DNA of 64,000 nucleotides from positions 18,970-82,969 of the IMG/VR virus record IMGVR_UViG_3300046001_006965. One strand, written 5' to 3'. The position numbers and the translations under genes are program-made. Below, piece by piece: positions 3,830 through 20,967 of the stretch (the first letter of the stretch is position 1; each line of letters opens with the position of its first letter). The notes under the pieces are model-generated. The model searched no databases and was not told the origin of the DNA. It worked only from the letters and a program-made list of their open reading frames with translations. The DNA comes from a virus.

Positions 3830-3898
3830 TGCGGATGTCGGACTCGAACCGATCTAATAGGTTATGAGCCTACTGTGCTAGCCATTACACTACACCGC
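3830..3898 (-). tRNA. tRNA with anticodon CAT (Met or Ile2)
   Basis: Read on the minus strand from 3898. The D-arm is GTGT/GCAC. The anticodon arm is GTAGG-CTCATAA-CCTAT, with a proper U33 and anticodon CAT. The T-loop is TTCGAGT. The acceptor stem is GCGG-TGT against ACA-T-CCGC, one base bulged. CCA is not encoded (ACA follows). Whether it is charged with Met or, after lysidine modification, with Ile cannot be told from sequence. Confidence 0.8.
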
Positions 3899-4005: not shown

Positions 4006-4075
4006 TGGAGAAGAACGGACTCGAACCGATATACCGAAGCACCAACAACTGCTCTACCATTTGAGCTACTTCCCC
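4006..4075 (-). tRNA. tRNA-like gene, isotype unclear
   Basis: Starting at 4075 on the minus strand: acceptor GGGGAAG pairs with CTTCTCC, D-arm GCTC/GAGC with an AAATGGTA loop, T-arm ATCGG-TTCGAGT-CCGTT with one mismatch. The anticodon region between D and T arms is 2-3 bases short and gives no clean 5-bp stem, so the anticodon cannot be read; GGT is one possibility. It shares the run ATCGGTTCGAGTCCG with the CAT tRNA beside it. It may be a decayed tRNA or an unusual one. Confidence 0.5.
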
Positions 4076-4518: not shown

Positions 4519-4558
4519 CAAAAGTAACATATTTTACAATATAATTGCAAAATATGTT
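4519..4558 (-). promoter_or_regulatory. operator-promoter A (33-bp operator family)
   Basis: On the minus strand, 4558 to 4526 reads AACATATTTTGCAAT-TAT-ATTGTAAAATATGTT, a 15-3-15 inverted repeat. The -7 element TACTTTTG (4519-4526) overlaps its end, and a TTG lies 21 bases upstream as -33. Only eight bases separate the -7 element from the ATG at 4510, so the transcript should be leaderless or nearly so. Confidence 0.7.
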
Positions 4559-4577
4559 ATTAATTAGTTAAAAAAAG

Positions 4578-7082: not shown

Positions 7083-7122
7083 CAAATGTAACAAAATATG
7101 TTATTACATTGCAAAATATGTT
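7083..7122 (-). promoter_or_regulatory. operator-promoter B (33-bp operator family)
   Basis: Minus strand 7122 to 7090 starts AACATATTTTGCAAT and repeats AACATATTTTGTT 20 bases on, so here the two half-sites are direct. The -7 element TACATTTG is at 7083-7090, with TTG 21 bases upstream. It drives the methyltransferase gene starting at 7046. Confidence 0.7.
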
Positions 7123-7130
7123 ATAATAGA

Positions 7131-13029: not shown

Positions 13030-13107
13030 TGAGCTATAAATTCCCAACGTCTCACTTTTGGTTCATTACAGCTCAATGCTATGCTTTAAGTTTCGTAATG
13101 TGAGACG
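13030..13107 (-). ncRNA. structured pseudoknot leader upstream of pcfK
   Basis: Minus-strand 5' UTR. P1 pairs CGTCTCAC (13100-13107) with GTGAGACG (13048-13055). Inside, hairpin P2 CATT/AATG (13075-13078 with 13064-13067) presents a 7-nt loop GAGCTGT (13068-13074). That loop can pair in full, with one G-U, to ATAGCTC at 13031-13037, 10 bases past P1. The same layout with different bases is found at 20810-20887. The pseudoknot ends about 40 bases before the pcfK ATG. Confidence 0.55.
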
Positions 13108-13119
13108 GAAACTGTTTTG

Positions 13120-13170
13120 TAAATATATAAAATCAATAACATATTTTGCAAGTTTATAACCTAATATGTT
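13120..13170 (-). promoter_or_regulatory. operator-promoter C (33-bp operator family)
   Basis: Minus strand 13170 to 13138 reads AACATATT at one end and TTGCAAAATATGTT at the other, exactly 33 bases. The -33 TTG is inside the second half-site, the spacer is 21 bases and the -7 element is TATATTTA (13120-13127). Compared with promoters A and B the promoter is shifted downstream by 11 bases, one helical turn, relative to the operator. Confidence 0.7.
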
Positions 13171-13193
13171 ATTGTTCTAAATAAGATATGGAG

Positions 13194-13631
13194 CTATAAT
13201 CCCCAAATTAGCATCATTGCATCACGCTGCTCTTGATTGGTTCTTTCTTTTATTTTGGTAATCTGCTCAAAAAATTTTGAATCTGTTTTAGATTTCGTTG
13301 GTTTTACTTGTGTAAATGGTAGTTTCAAGAACTCGCACATTTCGCAAATTTTCTTAGCTATCTCGTGATTTGCTCCAACCCGCTCACTTATTTTTCCATT
13401 AAAAGCTGTGGAAGCTGCTGCTTTGAAATGCCTGTTTCCTCCGTTCAGAAATCCACATTCTACATACACCATCACCTCGTAATCTAAATATTCTGGTGTG
13501 TTTTTTATAAAATAAAGCATTTGCAAAAGCTCGAAAAACTTTAAATTTTTAAGCTGTATTTTTTTGCCTGATTTCAAGGCAAACCCAGATTTATCGGTGT
13601 CAGGATCTATGCCTATAAGTATTTTTCCCAT
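13194..13631 (-). CDS. RuvC-like Holliday junction resolvase
   Basis: 145 residues with the RNase H-like nuclease layout. The first strand is IGIDPDTDKSGFA (Asp), a central Glu lies in VYVECGF, and the C-terminal acidic residue is in QEQRDAMMLIWGL. It would cut four-way junctions or branched replication intermediates before packaging. It is the last gene of the recombination operon that begins below promoter D; promoter C follows directly. Confidence 0.75.
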   Translation of the reverse strand: MGKILIGIDPDTDKSGFALKSGKKIQLKNLKFFELLQMLYFIKNTPEYLDYEVMVYVECGFLNGGNRHFKAAASTAFNGKISERVGANHEIAKKICEMCEFLKLPFTQVKPTKSKTDSKFFEQITKIKERTNQEQRDAMMLIWGL

Positions 13632-13633
13632 AA

Positions 13634-13999
13634 TTAAAAAATTGATTTTTCTTCAAAAGATTCGCATTTGTTTGGCATAGGTTCTTGTTCTTGAAAGGTT
13701 TCATATTTTTTATGAAGTCCTCTTTTTTCAATAGAAAAAGGAAACATTAATTTATCTAATTTTGAACATTTAAAAACTTTTACCATTTTATCTGTGTAAT
13801 CAACTTCTCCATATCCGCAATACGTTTCAAAAGAAACTTCTTTTTGTATTTTTTCTAAATGTTCGCAAAAGTGACAGGCTTTTTTATTGGCTGGATTTTG
13901 ATCGCATTTCAATTCGTGGTTGATCATTGCGTGTTTTCGCTTCAATTCTTTTTTACAAAAATCACATTTGTAAATGGTTACGTTTTCGATTGTTTTCAT
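13634..13999 (-). CDS. C2H2/CxxC zinc-finger protein
   Basis: 121 residues. The N-terminus YKCDFCKKELKRKHAMINH followed by ExKC is a C2H2-like finger; a second Cys/His group ACHFCEH follows, then scattered Cys. Likely a small DNA- or protein-binding factor. No known phage family could be assigned. Confidence 0.6.
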   Translation of the reverse strand: MKTIENVTIYKCDFCKKELKRKHAMINHELKCDQNPANKKACHFCEHLEKIQKEVSFETYCGYGEVDYTDKMVKVFKCSKLDKLMFPFSIEKRGLHKKYETFQEQEPMPNKCESFEEKSIF

Positions 14000-14011
14000 T
14001 TTGTAATAGAA

Positions 14012-14752
14012 TTAAAATTTATAATCTCCTTTTATTACTAATCTTTTTTGTCTCAAGTAATTCAGAAAAGGTTGCATTTCGGTTTTCTTTTCCCAATCGA
14101 TAATGGTATCTTCCAGCATTTGTCGGTCCATATTTTGAACCATTTCATCTATTTCCTGATGCATCTGTGCCTCTTTTTCCTTTCGTAATTTTTCAGCTTT
14201 TCTTTTTTCGTAGAACTGATGAACGGCATTGCTTCGAATATCATTTTCAGTTTGGGTGCTGCTGGTTTCTCTCTCTTTGATTCGCTCAAATTCAATGTAT
14301 TTTTTTTCGAGATATTCCGGCATCCATTTTACAAGCACGTTTTGTCCATCAAGTTTGTAATCTTTACCGTCTCCCAGAATGCCTTGACGAACTTGTTTGA
14401 GCATCAACACAACGTCTTCGATAGTTTCATAAGGATATTTTTCGGCGATATCCGCTGCCAGCAAAGCTGACTGTGTTGCAGAAAGTGATTTTCCAACATT
14501 GAAATTTGCATTAAATCTGTTGAGCAAATAACAAATGGCGGTTATGGTGCCAATTTCTCCAACTGTTTTTTCTAGTTTTTTAAGTGTGGTACCGTCAATG
14601 GCTTTTATCAAACTTAGATTTTTCTCAAAAACAATTAATCCAACTTCGTTATTAGCCGCCAAACATTGCATTAACTGCATTGACTGCTGATTGCTTATGG
14701 TTAGCATCTGCTCTTTGTGAATTGAGACTTCGTACATTTTCTCTGTTTCCAT
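14012..14752 (-). CDS. conserved Bacteroidetes phage protein, possible replication factor
   Basis: 246 residues. The middle region ALLAADIAEKYPYETIEDVV with LMLKQVRQGILGDGKDYKLD resembles proteins found beside DnaD/DUF4373 replication genes in Bacteroidetes phages. The C-terminal 80 residues are a Lys/Glu coiled coil. It overlaps the DUF4373 gene upstream by 101 bases in another frame. A helicase-loader role is possible, not shown. Confidence 0.6.
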   Translation of the reverse strand: METEKMYEVSIHKEQMLTISNQQSMQLMQCLAANNEVGLIVFEKNLSLIKAIDGTTLKKLEKTVGEIGTITAICYLLNRFNANFNVGKSLSATQSALLAADIAEKYPYETIEDVVLMLKQVRQGILGDGKDYKLDGQNVLVKWMPEYLEKKYIEFERIKERETSSTQTENDIRSNAVHQFYEKRKAEKLRKEKEAQMHQEIDEMVQNMDRQMLEDTIIDWEKKTEMQPFLNYLRQKRLVIKGDYKF

Positions 14753-15578
14753 AATTATCTTCTAAAATTTTTAAAAAATTGGCTGGTTTGAAAATCCAAT
14801 CAAAACTAGCCGTCCAGTTATCTTTGTTGTCGCCCTGCAGAAATGGGGAATCTCTCGTTTTTTGAATTACGTTCTGAATTGATTCTTTGCCGTATTGTTT
14901 TTCCAACAGCTGAATTCTTTTTTTCCTGACATCTGACATTTTTTTTACTTCAGGTAAAAGCCCCCGGTTTGAATTAAAAAAAGAAAGAAGTTTATCAAAA
15001 TCAATCTTGTGGGTTGGAAGTTGATTTGGAAAATCAACAACTCCGTTAGGAGTATATTTTTCTTTTGTTTTCTCTTCTATAATTTCCTCTTCTATACTAT
15101 ACTCTTCTTTTCTTTGCGGATAACTTCCGGCAATCTCCCGCGGATTGACCTCTTTTTTGGGGCAATCTCCCGCGGATTGACCTCTTTTTTGCCTTATTTT
15201 GTCCAATATGTCGGAGTATTGAAACATTTCTGTTTTTCTTTTTCGATAAGCATCTTGAATACTGTCGGCAAATTTTTGACTGTAAATCACTTTGTAATCA
15301 TCAAAAAGAGCTTTGTCAATTGCTCCTAATTTTGCCAAATCATTTAAAATCGAAAGTGTTTTTTCTTCGTCAATTTTAAAAATAGAATTCAGAAACATTA
15401 AGGTCATTTCATCTGAAGCATCTATGTAATGATTATTGGCCTTTCCCAGCTGTTCTAATAGCTTAAACCAGGTTGCATACCCATCATTACCGTATTTTGT
15501 TTCTATGATGTGCATTTTGCGTCCGTGAGTACAATCGTGTGGAAAATAATCAACATCTTTTCTTTGTTCTCTAGCCAT
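14652..15578 (-). CDS. DUF4373 (Lin1244/Lin1753-like) replication initiation protein
   Basis: 308 residues. Residues 8-100 have the DUF4373 winged-helix pattern: YFPHDCTHGRKMHIIETKYG, YATWFKLLEQLG, then an alternation typical of DnaD-like domains. The C-terminal region with FDWIFKPANFLKILEDNYG is the DnaD-like tail. Such proteins open the origin or load helicase. The linker contains a 32-bp tandem duplication (15129-15191) read in two frames. Confidence 0.75.
   Translation of the reverse strand: MAREQRKDVDYFPHDCTHGRKMHIIETKYGNDGYATWFKLLEQLGKANNHYIDASDEMTLMFLNSIFKIDEEKTLSILNDLAKLGAIDKALFDDYKVIYSQKFADSIQDAYRKRKTEMFQYSDILDKIRQKRGQSAGDCPKKEVNPREIAGSYPQRKEEYSIEEEIIEEKTKEKYTPNGVVDFPNQLPTHKIDFDKLLSFFNSNRGLLPEVKKMSDVRKKRIQLLEKQYGKESIQNVIQKTRDSPFLQGDNKDNWTASFDWIFKPANFLKILEDNYGNRENVRSLNSQRADANHKQSAVNAVNAMFGG
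15129..15191. repeat. 32-bp tandem duplication inside the DUF4373 gene
   Basis: Two adjacent near-perfect copies of a 32-bp unit beginning GGCAATCTCCCGCGGATTGA at 15129 and 15161. Because 32 is not a multiple of three, the copies encode different peptides (KRGQSAGDCP and KKEVNPREIA), yet the reading frame stays open. Confidence 0.85.
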
Positions 15579-15586
15579 AATAATTT

Positions 15587-16735
15587 CTACTTTTTAAAAG
15601 GTACGTTTGTGAGTTGTCTTCCGTTGTTCCAGATGGCAAAACGACCTTCAGTATCAACTTCAATTTTCATTGTTTCAATCTTGCCAAATTGGTTGAGATT
15701 GCCTCCTAAATCTACCACCCACGCATTTTGTTTGTTGGGATGAATTCGCATGGCACGGCCTACAATTTGATAGAACAAAGACAACGACATCGTGGATCTG
15801 GCCATCAATACTGCTTCGAGTTCCGGATAATCAAACCCGGTGGTTAAAACACCCACATTTACCACGCATTTTATAATTCCTTTTTTGAATCTTGAAAGGA
15901 TGCGTTCGCGTTCTTCTTTCTTGGTATCCGATGTCAATAGAACGGCTCCCGGAATGCGTTTTACCACTTCTTTGGCTTCGGTGATCAAAGCGCAAAAAAT
16001 TAGAAGATTTGGCTTTTTTGACAGCACGTAAAAAGCATATTTTACAATCCGGCTGGGCATATCGATTGACTTGTAATACCGACTTAGTGAAGCGGTTGTA
16101 AAATCGGTTCCTGAACTGTTTAATTCTAGTTTTGAGCGATCAATTACATCAAAGGAGTAATACTCTAGCTTTGCCAAAAATCCAGCGTCAAACAGCGTAT
16201 TATTTTGAACGTAATACAGAATTTTATTAAAAATTCGTGGAGTGCTTCGGGTCAGGAATGTTAGCTGTGGTCCTTCGCTTGTTTGCGACAAACGATATGG
16301 TGTGGCGGTTAATCCCAACACATTGGCATCCGGAAAATGATTGATGAATTCCTGATACATTCCACCGTCTGAATTAACCAAATGACATTCGTCGATTAGT
16401 ATGTTTTTCAGTCCGGCAAACAAATGTTTTTTGTTGATGATGCTGCCAATGGTGCAAAAAGTGACGCGACCAATTATCTTTTCGCCAGCTGATGCGCTGT
16501 AGATGGATGCTTTGCCATATTTGGAATACTTCTCATAGTTCTGTTCCAGGATCTCTTTCGAGGGCTGGAGGATGATTGTTTTACCCTCCAGCGGTGCTAC
16601 TAAGTTGGCAATAACAATAGATTTTCCAGCGCCTGTTGGCAGGACAATTACAGCATTGTCATTTGACTTTCCCTGTAAATATTCCACTCCTAAACGTGTT
16701 GAATCTGCTTGATAAGGCCTTAATTGAAATCCCAT
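15587..16735 (-). CDS. SF2 DEAD/DEAH-box helicase
   Basis: 382 residues. Motif I PTGAGKS (33-39), motif II DECH (115-118), motif III TATPYR (143-148), and motif VI QIVGRAMR near 335 followed by VVDLGGNLNQFG. It is shorter than RadD/type III Res proteins of about 500-580 residues because it lacks a C-terminal extension. Likely unwinds DNA during phage replication or recombination; it follows the DUF4373 gene in the same operon. Confidence 0.9.
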   Translation of the reverse strand: MGFQLRPYQADSTRLGVEYLQGKSNDNAVIVLPTGAGKSIVIANLVAPLEGKTIILQPSKEILEQNYEKYSKYGKASIYSASAGEKIIGRVTFCTIGSIINKKHLFAGLKNILIDECHLVNSDGGMYQEFINHFPDANVLGLTATPYRLSQTSEGPQLTFLTRSTPRIFNKILYYVQNNTLFDAGFLAKLEYYSFDVIDRSKLELNSSGTDFTTASLSRYYKSIDMPSRIVKYAFYVLSKKPNLLIFCALITEAKEVVKRIPGAVLLTSDTKKEERERILSRFKKGIIKCVVNVGVLTTGFDYPELEAVLMARSTMSLSLFYQIVGRAMRIHPNKQNAWVVDLGGNLNQFGKIETMKIEVDTEGRFAIWNNGRQLTNVPFKK

Positions 16736-16737
16736 CC

Positions 16738-17340
16738 TTAAACGGCTTGTGATTCATCATCGAATTTTGCATTATCAAAAGAGGCATCTTCTGAAGCAAA
16801 ATCCATGTGCAATTGTTCTGGTTGTGGAGCTGATTTTCCGTTCATGTAAAACTCAACCTCTTTGATGGCATTATCTAAAATAGCAGTCAATTGAGTCAAA
16901 TAAAGATAGGCTCCGTTTAGTTTTACTTTTGGAGCACTAAACTTAATTACTCCATTTGTCACTTCTTTGTAACCTGATAAAATCAAAGCTCTGTTTTCCT
17001 CTACTCCAGATATTGAAAAAGCATTCACGAAATATTTTTCTGTTTCAACTTCTTCTTCAAGAAATGATAATTCGGTTGCATTATCATTACCCGTGTAGGC
17101 ATCATCCAAGTGTGCCAGGAACACATCAAACTTATCGAATGCTATTTCTAAATCTTCGTGAACGATGTGTTTTCCGTTTCTTGAAAGTCCATCGCCTTTA
17201 GTCTTTCCGGTTAATAATTCGTAGGAATAATTGCAAAGAGCATCTTTGAGCGAAGCGCTTTTTATTTCTACATCTTTTTGAACTTGATCTGCTAATCCTA
17301 ATTTTTCTGTAAGGATTGTGAAAACTTTTTCTTTTGACAT
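16738..17340 (-). CDS. hypothetical protein conserved in the recombination operon
   Basis: 200 residues, family not recognised. Mixed alpha/beta, with an acidic C-terminus (DFASEDASFDNAKFDDESQ) of the type seen in single-strand binding proteins. A segment EQLHMDF near residue 178 resembles a hexapeptide clamp motif weakly. It starts 10 bases below the winged-helix-like 17350 gene. Confidence 0.55.
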   Translation of the reverse strand: MSKEKVFTILTEKLGLADQVQKDVEIKSASLKDALCNYSYELLTGKTKGDGLSRNGKHIVHEDLEIAFDKFDVFLAHLDDAYTGNDNATELSFLEEEVETEKYFVNAFSISGVEENRALILSGYKEVTNGVIKFSAPKVKLNGAYLYLTQLTAILDNAIKEVEFYMNGKSAPQPEQLHMDFASEDASFDNAKFDDESQAV

Positions 17341-17349
17341 GGTGGTTAT

Positions 17350-17721
17350 TTAATTAAAAATTGATATTTGGTTTCTGTTTTGTTGCGATGCATTGGCCTG
17401 TTGTATCAGGCTGTATTCTTTGCTTATCCAAACTCGCAACGGTCTTTGGTGGGCTTCTTTATTGGTGCTTTTTTGGGTTCTTTCGGTATCGAAAATCAAA
17501 TGTCTTTTTGATAATTTTCTGAAAGGAACTCCAAAAACACTTGGTTGTGATGGAGGTGCATTTCCTGAATTAAAAAATGCCTTTTTCAGATCATCTGCAG
17601 TGAATGGTTTCATCTGTGTTTTTACCCAATTTTCGGCAAAAGCGCAAAGTTTATCGCAATAGACTTTGTTGTTTACTTCTACATCTTCGACGGCTTGGTT
17701 GGTTACTTGGAATGGTGTCAT
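17350..17721 (-). CDS. hypothetical protein ending in a clamp-binding-like motif
   Basis: 123 residues from the ATG at 17721; a longer frame from 17769 would overlap the gene upstream. The centre (FTADDLKKAFFNSG, then FRKLSKRHLIFDTER, then RPLRVWISKEYS) looks like a winged helix. The protein ends NQISIFN, close to the Q[L/I][S/D][L/I]F clamp-binding consensus. Function unknown. Confidence 0.6.
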   Translation of the reverse strand: MTPFQVTNQAVEDVEVNNKVYCDKLCAFAENWVKTQMKPFTADDLKKAFFNSGNAPPSQPSVFGVPFRKLSKRHLIFDTERTQKSTNKEAHQRPLRVWISKEYSLIQQANASQQNRNQISIFN

Positions 17722-17735
17722 AATTTTTTTTTGTT

Positions 17736-17942
17736 TTAAAAAGATTCCTTTTCTTTGAATAAAGAGCAAGCAGCATCTTTACATTTAATTTTTAATAGTC
17801 CATTATTGGTTCTGTTTGATTTCCTGATACCACAATACTGAAACACCTTTGAATTACATTCCCATCGTTGGCGGTGTTCACAATCTCTACAAGTATTTGT
17901 TGGTTTTGAAACCTGCTCTTCAAATTCAAATAGATTAACCAT
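17736..17942 (-). CDS. cysteine-rich small protein
   Basis: 68 residues with Cys at CRDCEHRQRWEC and later CGIRK and CKDAAC, eight in the whole protein by eye, arranged as a probable zinc module. No homologous family recognised. It overlaps its upstream neighbour by 8 bases. Confidence 0.5.
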   Translation of the reverse strand: MVNLFEFEEQVSKPTNTCRDCEHRQRWECNSKVFQYCGIRKSNRTNNGLLKIKCKDAACSLFKEKESF

Positions 17943-18324
17943 TAAAAGATTGCATTTCAGCTTTCGCTTTTGATATTAAAGTTCTGCACCAGTCTAGTTG
18001 GTGTGTACATGATGCATTTAATCTTGTTGCCCAAGTCAATAAGTAATTTTCATTTTCAACTAATGTATCTGTAAATTTTACTGCAACACTGGGTGGAAGG
18101 GCAACTATCTTTTTAATTTCTGAAACTATATCACTCCTTAATTTACGGTCCTTATGAATTTTAGAATCAGCTAGAAGTTTTCCGGTTCTTGCCATATAAA
18201 CTGATAATGTATTTCCTCTATAGACAGCCTCGTTAGCATCTTCACTCATTTCTATTTCAAGAAATTCCTGTATAGTTATTAGTTCTTTTTTAATTTCAGA
18301 TAGGCTTGTTACTAAGTCATTCAT
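17935..18324 (-). CDS. hypothetical protein
   Basis: 129 residues, helical, no family recognised. It contains an internal DANEAVYRGNTLSVYMARTG segment and a basic stretch. Coupled by an 8-base overlap to the Cys-rich gene. Confidence 0.5.
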   Translation of the reverse strand: MNDLVTSLSEIKKELITIQEFLEIEMSEDANEAVYRGNTLSVYMARTGKLLADSKIHKDRKLRSDIVSEIKKIVALPPSVAVKFTDTLVENENYLLTWATRLNASCTHQLDWCRTLISKAKAEMQSFNG

Positions 18325-18330
18325 CTTTTT

Positions 18331-18555
18331 TTAATTTTTGTAACCGTTAAAAGCCATTACTTGATCTTCTGGAATAAGGAATTTCACTACTGCCGTCAAT
18401 CCCCTAAAAAATCTTCTTTTCTGGGTAAGCGACTGAATAATTCCTTGATGCTTTTTAATCCTGGCATCATATTTTTTAGCATAATGTTTACTGAGCTCTA
18501 TTTCAAAAAGCAAGTAATTAATGCCGTTCAGCGTGTGTACAATTTTTTCACTCAT
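18331..18555 (-). CDS. hypothetical protein
   Basis: 74 residues from the ATG at 18555, which forms an ATGA overlap with the stop of the gene upstream and is therefore preferred over 18597. Helical N-terminus and basic middle (KKYDARIKKHQG, TQKRRFFRG). Function unknown. Confidence 0.5.
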   Translation of the reverse strand: MSEKIVHTLNGINYLLFEIELSKHYAKKYDARIKKHQGIIQSLTQKRRFFRGLTAVVKFLIPEDQVMAFNGYKN

Positions 18556-18842
18556 AATTCGGTGGCTTTTTTGATTGCTGATTTTGCTTTGTCCCAAGCA
18601 ATGTGATTCCTATCTGAGATTTTAACTACTTCTATTAATGCTTCCAGTAATTCCGGGGCTGCTGCGATTAGCTTGGCGTTTGATTTTGAAACGCTTTCAC
18701 AAATAAGGTTTCCACCATAATACTCAATGGCATCTTCGCCAACCGAACCTCTTATAGAAAGTGATTCATCATTTTTAGAAATAACACAACTATTATATTT
18801 GCCTATTTCCCACGGTCCTTTTGTTCCTTTAAATTCTGCCAT
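18552..18842 (-). CDS. conserved phage protein (ANAKLIAAAPELLEAL type)
   Basis: 96 residues. GPWEIG near residue 11 and SNAKLIAAAPELLEALIEVV near 55-75 are a combination found in many phages of very different hosts; the function is unknown. It sits between the MBL hydrolase and small helical genes. Confidence 0.65.
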   Translation of the reverse strand: MAEFKGTKGPWEIGKYNSCVISKNDESLSIRGSVGEDAIEYYGGNLICESVSKSNAKLIAAAPELLEALIEVVKISDRNHIAWDKAKSAIKKATEL

Positions 18843-18844
18843 AA

Positions 18845-19585
18845 CTAAAAAGGTGTTTTATTAAAATTAATTTTCATACCGTTACTCGCCACGGTGACGT
18901 TTTTTCCTGTGAGTTCTGCCACTTCTTTTTGAAATTGTTTTTCATCTGAATTGCTGTCTGAAAGATGTATCAAAACGATGTTGTTGACTTTCGTTAGATC
19001 ATTGGCAGCCAACATATCCTTGCAGTTGGCCAGCGAGAAATGAGATCTTAAAATCCGGTTTCTCAAAAATTCCTTTCCAGAATCAGCTCCAAACTTTCTG
19101 TCGATGATTTCCTTTGAGAAATTGGCTTCGATAATGATATTATTCAATCCCTTGAAAGTATATTCACAATAGTAGGTATCGGTCAGGAAAAGCACCTTTC
19201 CACAATCAGGATGCTCGATCAAGAACCCCAAAGGTTCCGCTGCATCGTGTTTCACATCGAAAGCCATTACCTTGAAGTTTCCAATTTGTACCGTTTGTCT
19301 GGGTTTGATTGCCGTGGCTCTTGGAAGTGAAAAAACAAAGCGTTTTTCCAATGTTCCGGCAGAAGCATACATATCAATTCCCAACTTTATCACATCATAA
19401 ATGGCTTTGGAGTGGTCAAAGTGTTCGTGTGTACAAAGACAACCAACCACTTTTGACAAATCAAAATTCAAGGCCTGTTTTATGTCCTTGATGTTTACAC
19501 CACACTCGATAAGCAAAGCCTCATTCTCGTTTCCAAGAATGTAGGCATTACCCTTTGAGCCAGTTCCTATTATGTTAAGATTCAT
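18845..19585 (-). CDS. metallo-beta-lactamase-fold hydrolase
   Basis: 246 residues. The metal motif THEHFDH is at 52-58, with GTGSKGNAYIL at the N-terminus as in YycJ/WalJ-type and phage MBL nucleases. Further metal ligands are FLTDT near 130 and SHFS later. It likely cuts nucleic acid or a nucleotide ester. Being encoded between RecT and small genes in an operon with an SbcC-like ATPase but no SbcD, it may be the nuclease of that set. Confidence 0.85.
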   Translation of the reverse strand: MNLNIIGTGSKGNAYILGNENEALLIECGVNIKDIKQALNFDLSKVVGCLCTHEHFDHSKAIYDVIKLGIDMYASAGTLEKRFVFSLPRATAIKPRQTVQIGNFKVMAFDVKHDAAEPLGFLIEHPDCGKVLFLTDTYYCEYTFKGLNNIIIEANFSKEIIDRKFGADSGKEFLRNRILRSHFSLANCKDMLAANDLTKVNNIVLIHLSDSNSDEKQFQKEVAELTGKNVTVASNGMKINFNKTPF

Positions 19586-19685
19586 CTGATTTAGATTTAA
19601 TAATTGAAAGACATATAACTATAAATACTGCAACAGCAAAGGCGGTATCTTTATGCCTTTCAATTGTTATGAAAAAAATTTCCAT
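19575..19685 (-). CDS. 36-residue single-span membrane microprotein
   Basis: ATG at 19685 follows the RecT stop by 2 bases and the stop overlaps the MBL start. MEIFFITIERHKDTAF then AVAVFIVICLSIIKSK: one transmembrane helix and a basic end. Too short for gene finders; supported by exact operon packing. Confidence 0.45.
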   Translation of the reverse strand: MEIFFITIERHKDTAFAVAVFIVICLSIIKSKSDES

Positions 19686-19687
19686 AA

Positions 19688-20560
19688 TTAGAAGTTTGGA
19701 CCTGCAGGAGTTTCTTCAAATTCCAATTTTTCGGAAACCACTGTTTCAGGATCTACCACCACCGCATCTTCGATGTTGTTTTCGAAATCCAAACTTTGCT
19801 TGTTGGCTTTGGTTTTGATTTCGTGTTGAACGTCTAATGCTGGTTTGTCTGAAAGTAATCCTTTGTCACTTGAAGAAGATGTTTCAATTTTAAGAGATCT
19901 TGCAATTACTGTTTTTTCACACATCTGGTCAGGAAATTTATTATGTGCCGGTGAATTCCCTTTTGCTCCACCCATTGACCAGGATGTTTTTATTTGGTCA
20001 ATTGTCATTATTTCAGAATCTGAACTTCCATCATTGTATGTAACAATTGCATAGGCGCCTACAATTTTATCATTGGCAATGTTTGCCAATTTTTGATTGT
20101 GTTTTGTGACATTTTTTCTTCCTGTAGAAAAATCAACTGAATATTCAAATTCGTCATCTTTATAAACAGTCACAGCATTCACTTCTTTAACATTTGCAAC
20201 CCTTTTGGCTATTGCAATATCTCCAATATATGATTGGTCAAACTGGAGCTTATTCCCATAAACAACAAAGTATCCTTGCTTTTTTGAAACACTTAAACCG
20301 CTTGTTACCATATCAAGAAAAGCATTTGCAATGCTTTCTTTGGTACAAACTTCAAGTGCTGGATTTCCTCCTCTATCCACTACTCCTTGTAATACCAACC
20401 AAGCGGCTCTAACTGCGTTTTCAGGAACATAATCAGATGGTAAAACGATCTCTCCTGTGGCTTGTATTTCGGCTATTCTGGACAATACACTATTTACAGT
20501 TGCTTCGGTAAATTTGTTTGTCTTTTTTTCTACTACTTGTACATTTTCTGTTGTGCTCAT
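19688..20560 (-). CDS. recT: RecT single-strand annealing protein
   Basis: 290 residues, usual RecT length. Family features: NAFLDMVTSGLSVSKKQGYFV, IGDIAIAKR, and the segment WSMGGAKGNSPAHNKFPDQM ending CEKTVIARSLK. It anneals complementary single strands during phage recombination. The initiator region shares ACAATCAAATTTTAAAA with the pcfK and SMC genes. The exonuclease partner could be the SMC-like ATPase with an unidentified nuclease. Confidence 0.92.
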   Translation of the reverse strand: MSTTENVQVVEKKTNKFTEATVNSVLSRIAEIQATGEIVLPSDYVPENAVRAAWLVLQGVVDRGGNPALEVCTKESIANAFLDMVTSGLSVSKKQGYFVVYGNKLQFDQSYIGDIAIAKRVANVKEVNAVTVYKDDEFEYSVDFSTGRKNVTKHNQKLANIANDKIVGAYAIVTYNDGSSDSEIMTIDQIKTSWSMGGAKGNSPAHNKFPDQMCEKTVIARSLKIETSSSSDKGLLSDKPALDVQHEIKTKANKQSLDFENNIEDAVVVDPETVVSEKLEFEETPAGPNF

Positions 20561-20579
20561 TTTTTTAAAATTTGATTGT

Positions 20580-20795
20580 TTATAATTCTATTACTAATTG
20601 ATTACTGTTTATGATGGCTTCACACCTCACGAATTCAAGGTCAAAGGCTTGGGATTCGATTTCTTTTTTGGTATTTTGATTGTGTTTGCAGTTGGCGGTG
20701 CAATCAAAACTTCCAATTGTAATTCCTTTGTTTACCTTGCAATTTGCCAATAGATGACCGTCTTTGTTGCGTGGTATTTTGGTTTTATTTTCCAT
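20580..20795 (-). CDS. small hypothetical protein, first gene after promoter D
   Basis: 71 residues from the ATG at 20795 (MENKTKIPRNKDGHLLANCK). Contains SFDCTANCKHN, a possible zinc site. The 3' strand of the leader pseudoknot ends only about 14 bases upstream of this ATG, so translation could be gated by it. Function unknown. Confidence 0.55.
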   Translation of the reverse strand: MENKTKIPRNKDGHLLANCKVNKGITIGSFDCTANCKHNQNTKKEIESQAFDLEFVRCEAIINSNQLVIEL

Positions 20796-20809
20796 TTTAA
20801 AATAAAAAT

Positions 20810-20887
20810 GCCTTCGAAAAATCAATTACCGTCCGACGGGCAATCTCTTTTAAGAAGGCTAAAAGTTTAAAGTTCTACTGTCGGACG
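20810..20887 (-). ncRNA. structured pseudoknot leader upstream of the recT operon
   Basis: Minus-strand 5' UTR with the same layout as at 13030-13107. P1 pairs CGTCCGAC (20880-20887) with GTCGGACG (20830-20837). Hairpin P2 CTTTTA/TAAAAG (20860-20865 with 20847-20852) presents a 7-nt loop GCCTTCT (20853-20859). Six loop bases pair with GAAGGC at 20810-20815. Every helix differs in sequence from the other copy yet pairs. Confidence 0.55.
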
Positions 20888-20897
20888 AACTACTTTG

Positions 20898-20949
20898 TAA
20901 ATATACAAATTAAAATAACATATTTTGCAATTAAATAACTAAATATGTT
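20898..20949 (-). promoter_or_regulatory. operator-promoter D (33-bp operator family)
   Basis: Minus strand 20949 to 20917 starts AACATATT and ends TTGCAAAATATGTT, 33 bases. TTG, a 22-base spacer and -7 element TATATTTA (20898-20905) follow the same geometry as promoter C. It drives the recT-MBL-helicase-RuvC operon. Confidence 0.7.
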
Positions 20950-20967
20950 ATTATTTTTTAGCATCCA

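What the first reader, a model, noticed from the sequence alone, without database searches (positions are those of the whole stretch)
13030..20887. Two covarying pseudoknot leader RNAs upstream of replication and recombination operons
The 5' UTRs at 13030-13107 and 20810-20887 (minus strand) share one topology. An 8-bp P1 encloses a hairpin with a 7-nt loop, and that loop pairs with bases 10-14 nt after P1. Stem sequences differ (CGTCTCAC/GTGAGACG against CGTCCGAC/GTCGGACG; loop GAGCTGT/ATAGCTC against GCCTTC/GAAGGC) but all pair, which is covariation. Loop lengths are nearly equal (44 and 42 nt inside P1). In copy D the pseudoknot ends about 14 bases before a start codon. I do not recognise it as a known riboswitch class. 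It may sense a ligand, a phage protein or RNA decay.
Basis: seen in the sequence. Interest (0 to 1): 0.82.

Follow-up and report, generated by a model that had tools for sequence, protein, structure and literature searches.

The report
Kissing-loop leader RNAs in flavobacterial phages
Two stretches of this bacterial-virus genome encode RNA leaders that fold into two hairpins whose loops pair with each other, and they belong to an apparently undescribed RNA family found at the very start of messages in many viruses of flavobacteria, most likely a built-in switch or gate on gene expression.

Summary
The two leaders are real and homologous, but the topology must be redrawn. HP2 is followed by a U-rich stretch, then the start codon.

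A descriptor built from this anatomy finds about 35 distinct leaders in Bacteroidota phages, including isolates (Flavobacterium 11b, FCL-2, FCOV-F3, elemoF; Polaribacter P12002L, Freya_1, Danklef_1; Olleya Harreka_1; Croceibacter P2559S). At score 28 or more beside a promoter there are 39 hits in 4.4 Mb against 0 in shuffles. One subtype (17 sequences) has compensatory changes at 16 of 30 pairs, 0 of 500 shuffles as good, including one kissing pair. A covariance model without the kissing helix recovers independent members that have it. Rfam 15 has no match.

Downstream genes are very diverse (recombination, replication, homing endonucleases), which speaks against a ligand riboswitch. HP2 resembles this clade's intrinsic terminators, so I favour a cis-acting promoter-proximal attenuator (0.45) over a 5'-end clamp (0.25). 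No RNA data exist; function is inferred.

The parts
13135..13175 (-). dyad operator (AATAACATATT...AATATGTTATT) overlapping the -33 region of the promoter of leader B
   Evidence: near-identical in leader D; one related contig, L099/L020, shares the promoter
13120..13127 (-). -7 box TATATTTA (Bacteroidota TAnnTTTG type) of leader B; predicted +1 about 13115
   Evidence: box position -12 to -5 from PMC9723704
13089..13113 (-). leader B, HP1: stem AGTTTC (13113-13108) / GAAACT (13094-13089), loop carries the kissing strand
   Evidence: minimum-energy fold
13100..13107 (-). leader B, kissing strand 1 CGTCTCAC
13030..13075 (-). leader B, HP2: S2 TGAGCTGTAA (13075-13066)/TTATAGCTCA (13039-13030), P3 CCAA (13061-13058)/TTGG (13047-13044)
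   Evidence: kept in L099
13048..13055 (-). leader B, kissing strand 2 GTGAGACG in the HP2 loop
12479..12988 (-). first gene after leader B: PcfK-like protein, followed by PcfJ and DnaN
20898..20905 (-). -7 box TATATTTA of leader D; predicted +1 about 20893
   Evidence: spacing from PMC9723704
20871..20891 (-). leader D, HP1: AGTTC (20891-20887) / GAACT (20875-20871)
   Evidence: fold; sequence
20880..20887 (-). leader D, kissing strand 1 CGTCCGAC
20810..20859 (-). leader D, HP2: S2 GCCTTC (20859-20854)/GAAGGC (20815-20810), AAAA/TTTT, GA/GA internal loop, P3 GATTGC (20845-20840)/GTAATT (20829-20824)
   Evidence: homologue L130 turns a G-U of P3 into A-U
20830..20837 (-). leader D, kissing strand 2 GTCGGACG in the HP2 loop
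20796..20809 (-). U-rich tract ATTTTTATTTTAAA between HP2 and the start codon
20580..20795 (-). first gene after leader D: 71-aa conserved small protein, followed by RecT

Best explanation
The leaders are members of a phage-borne family of cis-acting 5'-UTR RNAs about 75-105 nt long. HP1 begins at the predicted transcription start. An A/U-rich linker leads to HP2, an intrinsic-terminator-like hairpin followed by a U-rich tract. The 6-9-nt loops of HP1 and HP2 pair as a kissing complex. Most likely this is a promoter-proximal attenuator (conditional terminator or pause) on the gene directly downstream: HP2 plus the U-tract makes RNA polymerase stop or pause in part of the transcripts, and kissing with HP1 sets how readily HP2 forms, so that anything that occupies or frees HP1 changes read-through. 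Shown here: existence, structure, covariation, position between promoter and start codon, U-tract, diversity of downstream genes. Inferred: termination or pausing, the direction of the kissing effect, and any trans factor.
For: Structure: descriptor hits beside promoters 39 real vs 0 shuffled at score 28 or more, 4.37 Mb; HP1 was not used in the first descriptors yet flanks the kissing strand in essentially all of their members (read by eye); the GTGG subtype covaries (16 of 30 pairs with double changes, 93.9% cells paired, 0/500 shuffles, slid controls 0.02-0.05 against 0.327), including a kissing pair (U-A to A-U, 11:6). G-U/A-U exchanges in S2 and HP1 point to RNA. A covariance model lacking the kissing helix finds 11b (E 2.6e-5), P2559S (1e-4), FCOV-F3 (two), FCL-2, P12002L, Freya_1 and Danklef_1; 10 of the best 11 matches carry the kissing complement. 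Attenuator: the other matches examined were mostly ordinary A-tract/U-tract terminator-like hairpins, so HP2 looks like this clade's terminators; U frequency is 0.6-0.9 in the 8 nt after HP2 and falls after that, and it is specific to leader-bearing genes; the U-tract is stronger on the sense side. Cis action: short HP2-to-ATG spacing (median 19 nt), homing endonucleases carry their own promoter plus leader, and the leader is kept while the next gene changes (L099 vs window; Danklef_1 vs Freya_1).
Against: By the d'Aubenton-Carafa rule only 16 of 36 HP2 hairpins score as terminators, and both window copies score negative (about -38 and -17). Some leaders sit inside long operons where strong termination would be polar. 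No transcript, termination or probing data exist. The U-tail was part of the filter for some listed members, although not for the GTGG subtype found by core sequence.
Confidence: 0.45

Rival explanations
1. A 5'-end clamp: the kissing complex buries the 5' terminus of the mRNA in HP1 and locks it, shielding it from 5'-dependent decay, and leaves an open A/U-rich start region, so it raises stability and translation of phage mRNAs.
For: HP1 starts a median 4 nt after the -7 box, which lies at -12 to -5 (PMC9723704), so the stem starts about at +1. HP2 ends a median 19 nt before the AUG, leaving the start region unpaired; in F. johnsoniae unstructured start regions favour translation (PMC6847099). 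Works for any gene, as observed.
Against: A single 5' hairpin would do; it does not explain the terminator-like U-tract or the invariant kissing core of the GTGG subtype.
Confidence: 0.25
2. A trans-acting small RNA gene: the promoter makes a terminated, kissing-stabilised RNA of about 100 nt that acts elsewhere, and the next gene is expressed by read-through or from upstream.
For: Element spans promoter to terminator-like end; both ends are structured.
Against: Strict coupling to a downstream start codon, and travel with homing endonuclease genes.
Confidence: 0.12
3. A put-like RNA that binds RNA polymerase as it emerges and makes it resistant to later terminators.
For: Structured RNA at the very start of phage replication and recombination transcripts, two per genome in the window.
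Against: Also precedes single homing endonuclease genes that would not need processive antitermination; U-tract unexplained.
Confidence: 0.08
4. A ligand-binding riboswitch or a binding site for the first gene's own protein.
For: Recurrent purine-rich internal loop (AGUA or AUUA opposite GAA) beside the kissing helix in about half of members.
Against: Downstream genes are unrelated; internal loop varies (AGUA/GAA, GGA/AAA, GA/GA, UGAU/UGAU, none).
Confidence: 0.05

Closest known systems
Intrinsic-terminator attenuators (leader terminators)
   Same: Promoter-proximal hairpin with 5' A-tract and U-rich 3' tract just before the gene
   Different: Terminator-like loop pairs with the loop of a hairpin at the 5' end; no leader peptide or known aptamer; stems A/U-rich with a conserved internal loop; not predicted to terminate strongly in all members
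T4/RB69 gene 32 leader pseudoknot (PMC3014915)
   Same: Phage mRNA leader pseudoknot followed by an A/U-rich region before the start codon
   Different: Gene-32-specific autoregulatory site, H-type pseudoknot; here a kissing complex before many unrelated genes
RNA hairpins before phage homing endonucleases (I-TevI, mobE; PMC3014915)
   Same: Structured leader before homing endonuclease genes
   Different: Those sequester the ribosome-binding site; here HP2 ends upstream of the start region and the leaders also precede non-endonuclease genes
HK022 put RNAs (own knowledge)
   Same: Short promoter-proximal phage RNA with two hairpins in early transcripts
   Different: No kissing interaction or U-tract is part of put as I know it; RNA polymerase binding not testable here
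Flavo-1 and other 5' elements of Flavobacteriaceae (PMC9723704)
   Same: Structured 5' regions in flavobacteria
   Different: Rfam models gave no match; the GTGG-subtype core is absent from 400 host genomes

Membership tests
any Rfam 15 family | covariance-model match at gathering score | tested here: not met
   (no RNA family at the leaders); only sub-threshold matches
kissing-loop leader family described here | HP1 + HP2 + loop-loop complement directly after a TAnnTTTG-type promoter | tested here: met
   window B and D; genome-scale control
kissing-loop leader family described here | compensatory base changes in the helices | tested here: met
   for the GTGG subtype; B vs D in the kissing helix
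intrinsic terminator / attenuator | stable hairpin followed at once by a U-tract | tested here: inconclusive
   U-tract present and HP2 looks like clade terminators, but score >0 in only 16 of 36 and negative for both window copies
intrinsic terminator / attenuator | termination at that point in vivo or in vitro | not testable with these tools
   no RNA data
metabolite riboswitch | conserved ligand-binding core before functionally related genes | tested here: not met
   core loops vary between subtypes and downstream genes are unrelated
gp32-type autoregulatory pseudoknot | linked to one regulated gene family | tested here: not met
start-region-sequestering hairpin (mobE, I-TevI type) | hairpin includes the ribosome-binding site or start region | tested here: not met
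   HP2 ends a median 19 nt before ATG
put-type antitermination RNA | binds RNA polymerase and gives processive antitermination | not testable with these tools
   needs transcription assays

The most novel reading that the evidence does not exclude
A new, phage-specific class of conditional terminators in which read-through is decided by a loop-loop kiss between the RNA's own 5' hairpin and the terminator hairpin. The terminated leader RNA, which carries both loops, could then act in trans on nascent copies of its own leader as a feedback timer for phage gene expression.
Probability: 0.2. Interest if true: 0.88.

Novelty: new variant of a known kind. Interest (0 to 1): 0.74.

Why it matters
Gene control in Bacteroidota phages is largely unmapped: their hosts use their own promoter type and do not rely on Shine-Dalgarno sequences. 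A recurring, covarying RNA placed exactly between promoter and start codon of replication, recombination and homing-endonuclease genes gives a concrete, testable regulatory module, adds a family to RNA databases, and marks true promoters and start codons in these genomes (in P2559S the annotated gene start lies inside the element).

Tried and rejected
(2) Known Rfam families: none. (3) Leader tied to PcfK or RecT: most homologues of these genes lack it. (4) Host chromosomal element: GTGG core in 0 of 400 Flavobacteriaceae genomes against 18 viral stretches. (5) Pattern CCCGCCGACTCGGGGAAC in viral contigs: of 7 stretches only the two phages already known (on three records, L173, L174, L179) are real, the rest are coding-sequence chance matches. 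(6) Control phages T4 and K: no hit that also has the U-rich tail; T4 did give hits with the promoter-like box but no U-tract, taken as chance. (7) High-scoring L084-726 and L238+15415 judged false (long linker or simple inverted repeats). (8) Inner '7-nt-loop' pairs in D (CTTTTA/TAAAAG) compete with HP2 and are not in the minimum-energy fold. (9) B124-14 and B40-8 share a weak candidate without U-tract; left open. (10) Literature searches for a described kissing-loop leader found none in the open-access library.
Full report
WHAT WAS CHECKED. The window lies in a virus record of 82,969 bases with a Bacteroidota phage/prophage gene set. On the minus strand, leader B (13113-13030) precedes PcfK, PcfJ and DnaN, and leader D (20891-20810) precedes a 71-aa small protein and RecT. 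Both start directly after a Bacteroidota-type -7 box TATATTTA (13127-13120; 20905-20898) and share a dyad operator, 78% identity over about 200 columns. The stated complementary segments are present. By themselves such complementarities are common: 32 loose hits in 64 kb.

HOMOLOGUES CHANGED THE MODEL. A promoter-pattern search found the close homologue L099 (same contig as L020), where leader B is kept although the next gene differs. A promoter + P1 + loop-tail descriptor over 99 and then 144 phage loci found the same arrangement in unrelated Bacteroidota phages. The RNA is therefore a kissing complex of two hairpins. Thermodynamic folding without pseudoknots gives HP1 and HP2 in B, D and four relatives.

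MORE THAN CHANCE. A descriptor with HP1, kissing strands, P3 and S2, run over 318 loci (4.37 Mb), gives 39 hits at score 28 or more beside a TAnnTTT(G/A) box, and 0 in one dinucleotide-shuffled copy of the loci; at 26 or more, 54 against 2. Phages T4 and K (about 320 kb) give no hit that also has the U-rich tail; T4 gives a couple of box-bearing hits without it. About 35 distinct leaders remain after removing near-duplicates and dubious hits. Isolated phages with the element: Flavobacterium 11b, FCL-2, FCOV-F3 (two), elemoF_6-3D; Polaribacter P12002L, Freya_1 (two), Danklef_1; Olleya Harreka_1; Croceibacter P2559S. Not found by this scan: crAss001, phi14:2, phi38:1, 6H, RAP44, P12024S, BS-TP3.

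COVARIATION. The GTGG subtype was collected by its core sequence alone (18 viral stretches). In the 17-sequence alignment 93.9% of cells pair and 16 of 30 pairs show changes on both sides (51 cells); 0 of 500 shuffles reach any measure, and slid versions fall from 0.327 to 0.02-0.05 (the arms-only version, agrees: 17 of 31). HP1 and S2 carry most changes; one kissing pair switches U-A to A-U in 6 of 17. S2 pair 68-103 is U-G in 9 and U-A in 8 sequences, as expected of RNA. Some relatedness among these phages remains; the shuffle control does not remove it, but the slid controls do. A covariance model of this subtype with HP1, S2 and P3 but no kissing helix then retrieved other subtypes: 11b E=2.6e-5, P2559S 1e-4, FCOV-F3 0.0013 and 0.0058, the L063 phage 0.0071, FCL-2, P12002L, Freya_1, Danklef_1; 10 of the top 11 matches carry the kissing complement that the model did not know.

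ANATOMY. HP1 starts a median 4 nt after the -7 box. In F. psychrophilum this box lies at -12 to -5 (PMC9723704), so the stem starts about at +1. The element is 74-106 nt long; HP2 ends a median 19 nt before the ATG (most 5-45). The internal loop between S2 and P3 is often AGUA or AUUA opposite GAA, reminiscent of the loop E / sarcin-ricin motif (a resemblance recalled from knowledge, not tested in 3D), or GGA/AAA, or GA/GA in D. U frequency in the 8 nt after HP2 is 0.6-0.9 and then gives way to A; genes without the element do not show this U excess. In some listed members a U-rich tail was part of the filter; the GTGG set was not so filtered.

GENES. Downstream products include NUMOD4/HNH and GIY-YIG homing endonucleases, endonuclease VII, Prim-Pol, RNase H, DUF3127, DUF6291 and DUF7659 proteins, RecT and PcfK operons, and a metallo-beta-lactamase-fold gene in Freya_1. 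The same leader keeps its place while the following gene changes (window vs L099; Danklef_1 vs Freya_1), and G413 carries one leader type before two different NUMOD4-like genes. This points to a portable cis element and not to a gene-specific sensor. The GTGG core is absent from 400 Flavobacteriaceae genomes.

MECHANISM. The model's other matches that were examined were mostly ordinary terminator-like hairpins with A-tract and U-tract, so HP2 plus the U-tract resembles the terminators of this clade. By the d'Aubenton-Carafa rule 16 of 36 score as terminators; B and D do not. I therefore favour a partial, conditional terminator or pause hairpin whose formation is tuned by the HP1 kiss. That is an inference: position, structure and U-tract are shown; termination, the sign of the kissing effect and any trans factor are not. 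The main rival is a 5'-end clamp that stabilises the message and leaves the start region open; F. johnsoniae translation favours unstructured start regions (PMC6847099). A ligand riboswitch and an autoregulatory site in the style of T4 gene 32 (PMC3014915) fit poorly with the diversity of genes.

NOVELTY. No Rfam 15 family matches, and no description was found in the open-access library, which lacks most subscription papers. I rate it a new RNA family within a known kind (phage cis-acting leader RNAs), with a loop-loop architecture that I do not know from other leaders.

Noticed in passing
window 4533-4561, 7095-7125, 13135-13175, 20914-20955: A dyad operator (TAACATATT / AATATGTTA, often with TTGCAAAATATGTTA) recurs at several promoters in the window and at promoters of related phages; only two of the window's sites are followed by a kissing-loop leader.
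   Followed up: partly
window 4006-4075 (-) and 3830-3898 (-): Rfam finds two tRNAs; ARAGORN only the Met one. The second may be degenerate or unusual.
   Followed up: no
L317 (NC_018276 33700-35500): In Croceibacter phage P2559S the annotated start of gp48 (33955) lies inside the leader; the ATG after HP2 is the more likely start.
   Followed up: partly
L065 2524-2601: Rfam RT-17 RNA match (40.8 bits, just above gathering) in a phage contig that also carries two kissing-loop leaders.
   Followed up: no
L305 about 2987 (B124-14) and L236 about 1011 (B40-8): Weak kissing-loop-like candidate without a U-tract after a promoter-like box in two Bacteroides fragilis phages; unclear whether related.
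   Followed up: no
L313 11090-11173, L141 2357-2455, L024 9095-9173: Terminator-like hairpins with A-tract and U-tract; useful comparison set for HP2.
   Followed up: partly
window 13194-13631 (-): 145-aa protein directly upstream of leader B (GIDPD...; RuvC-like by eye) without a Pfam match; conserved in related phages.
   Followed up: no
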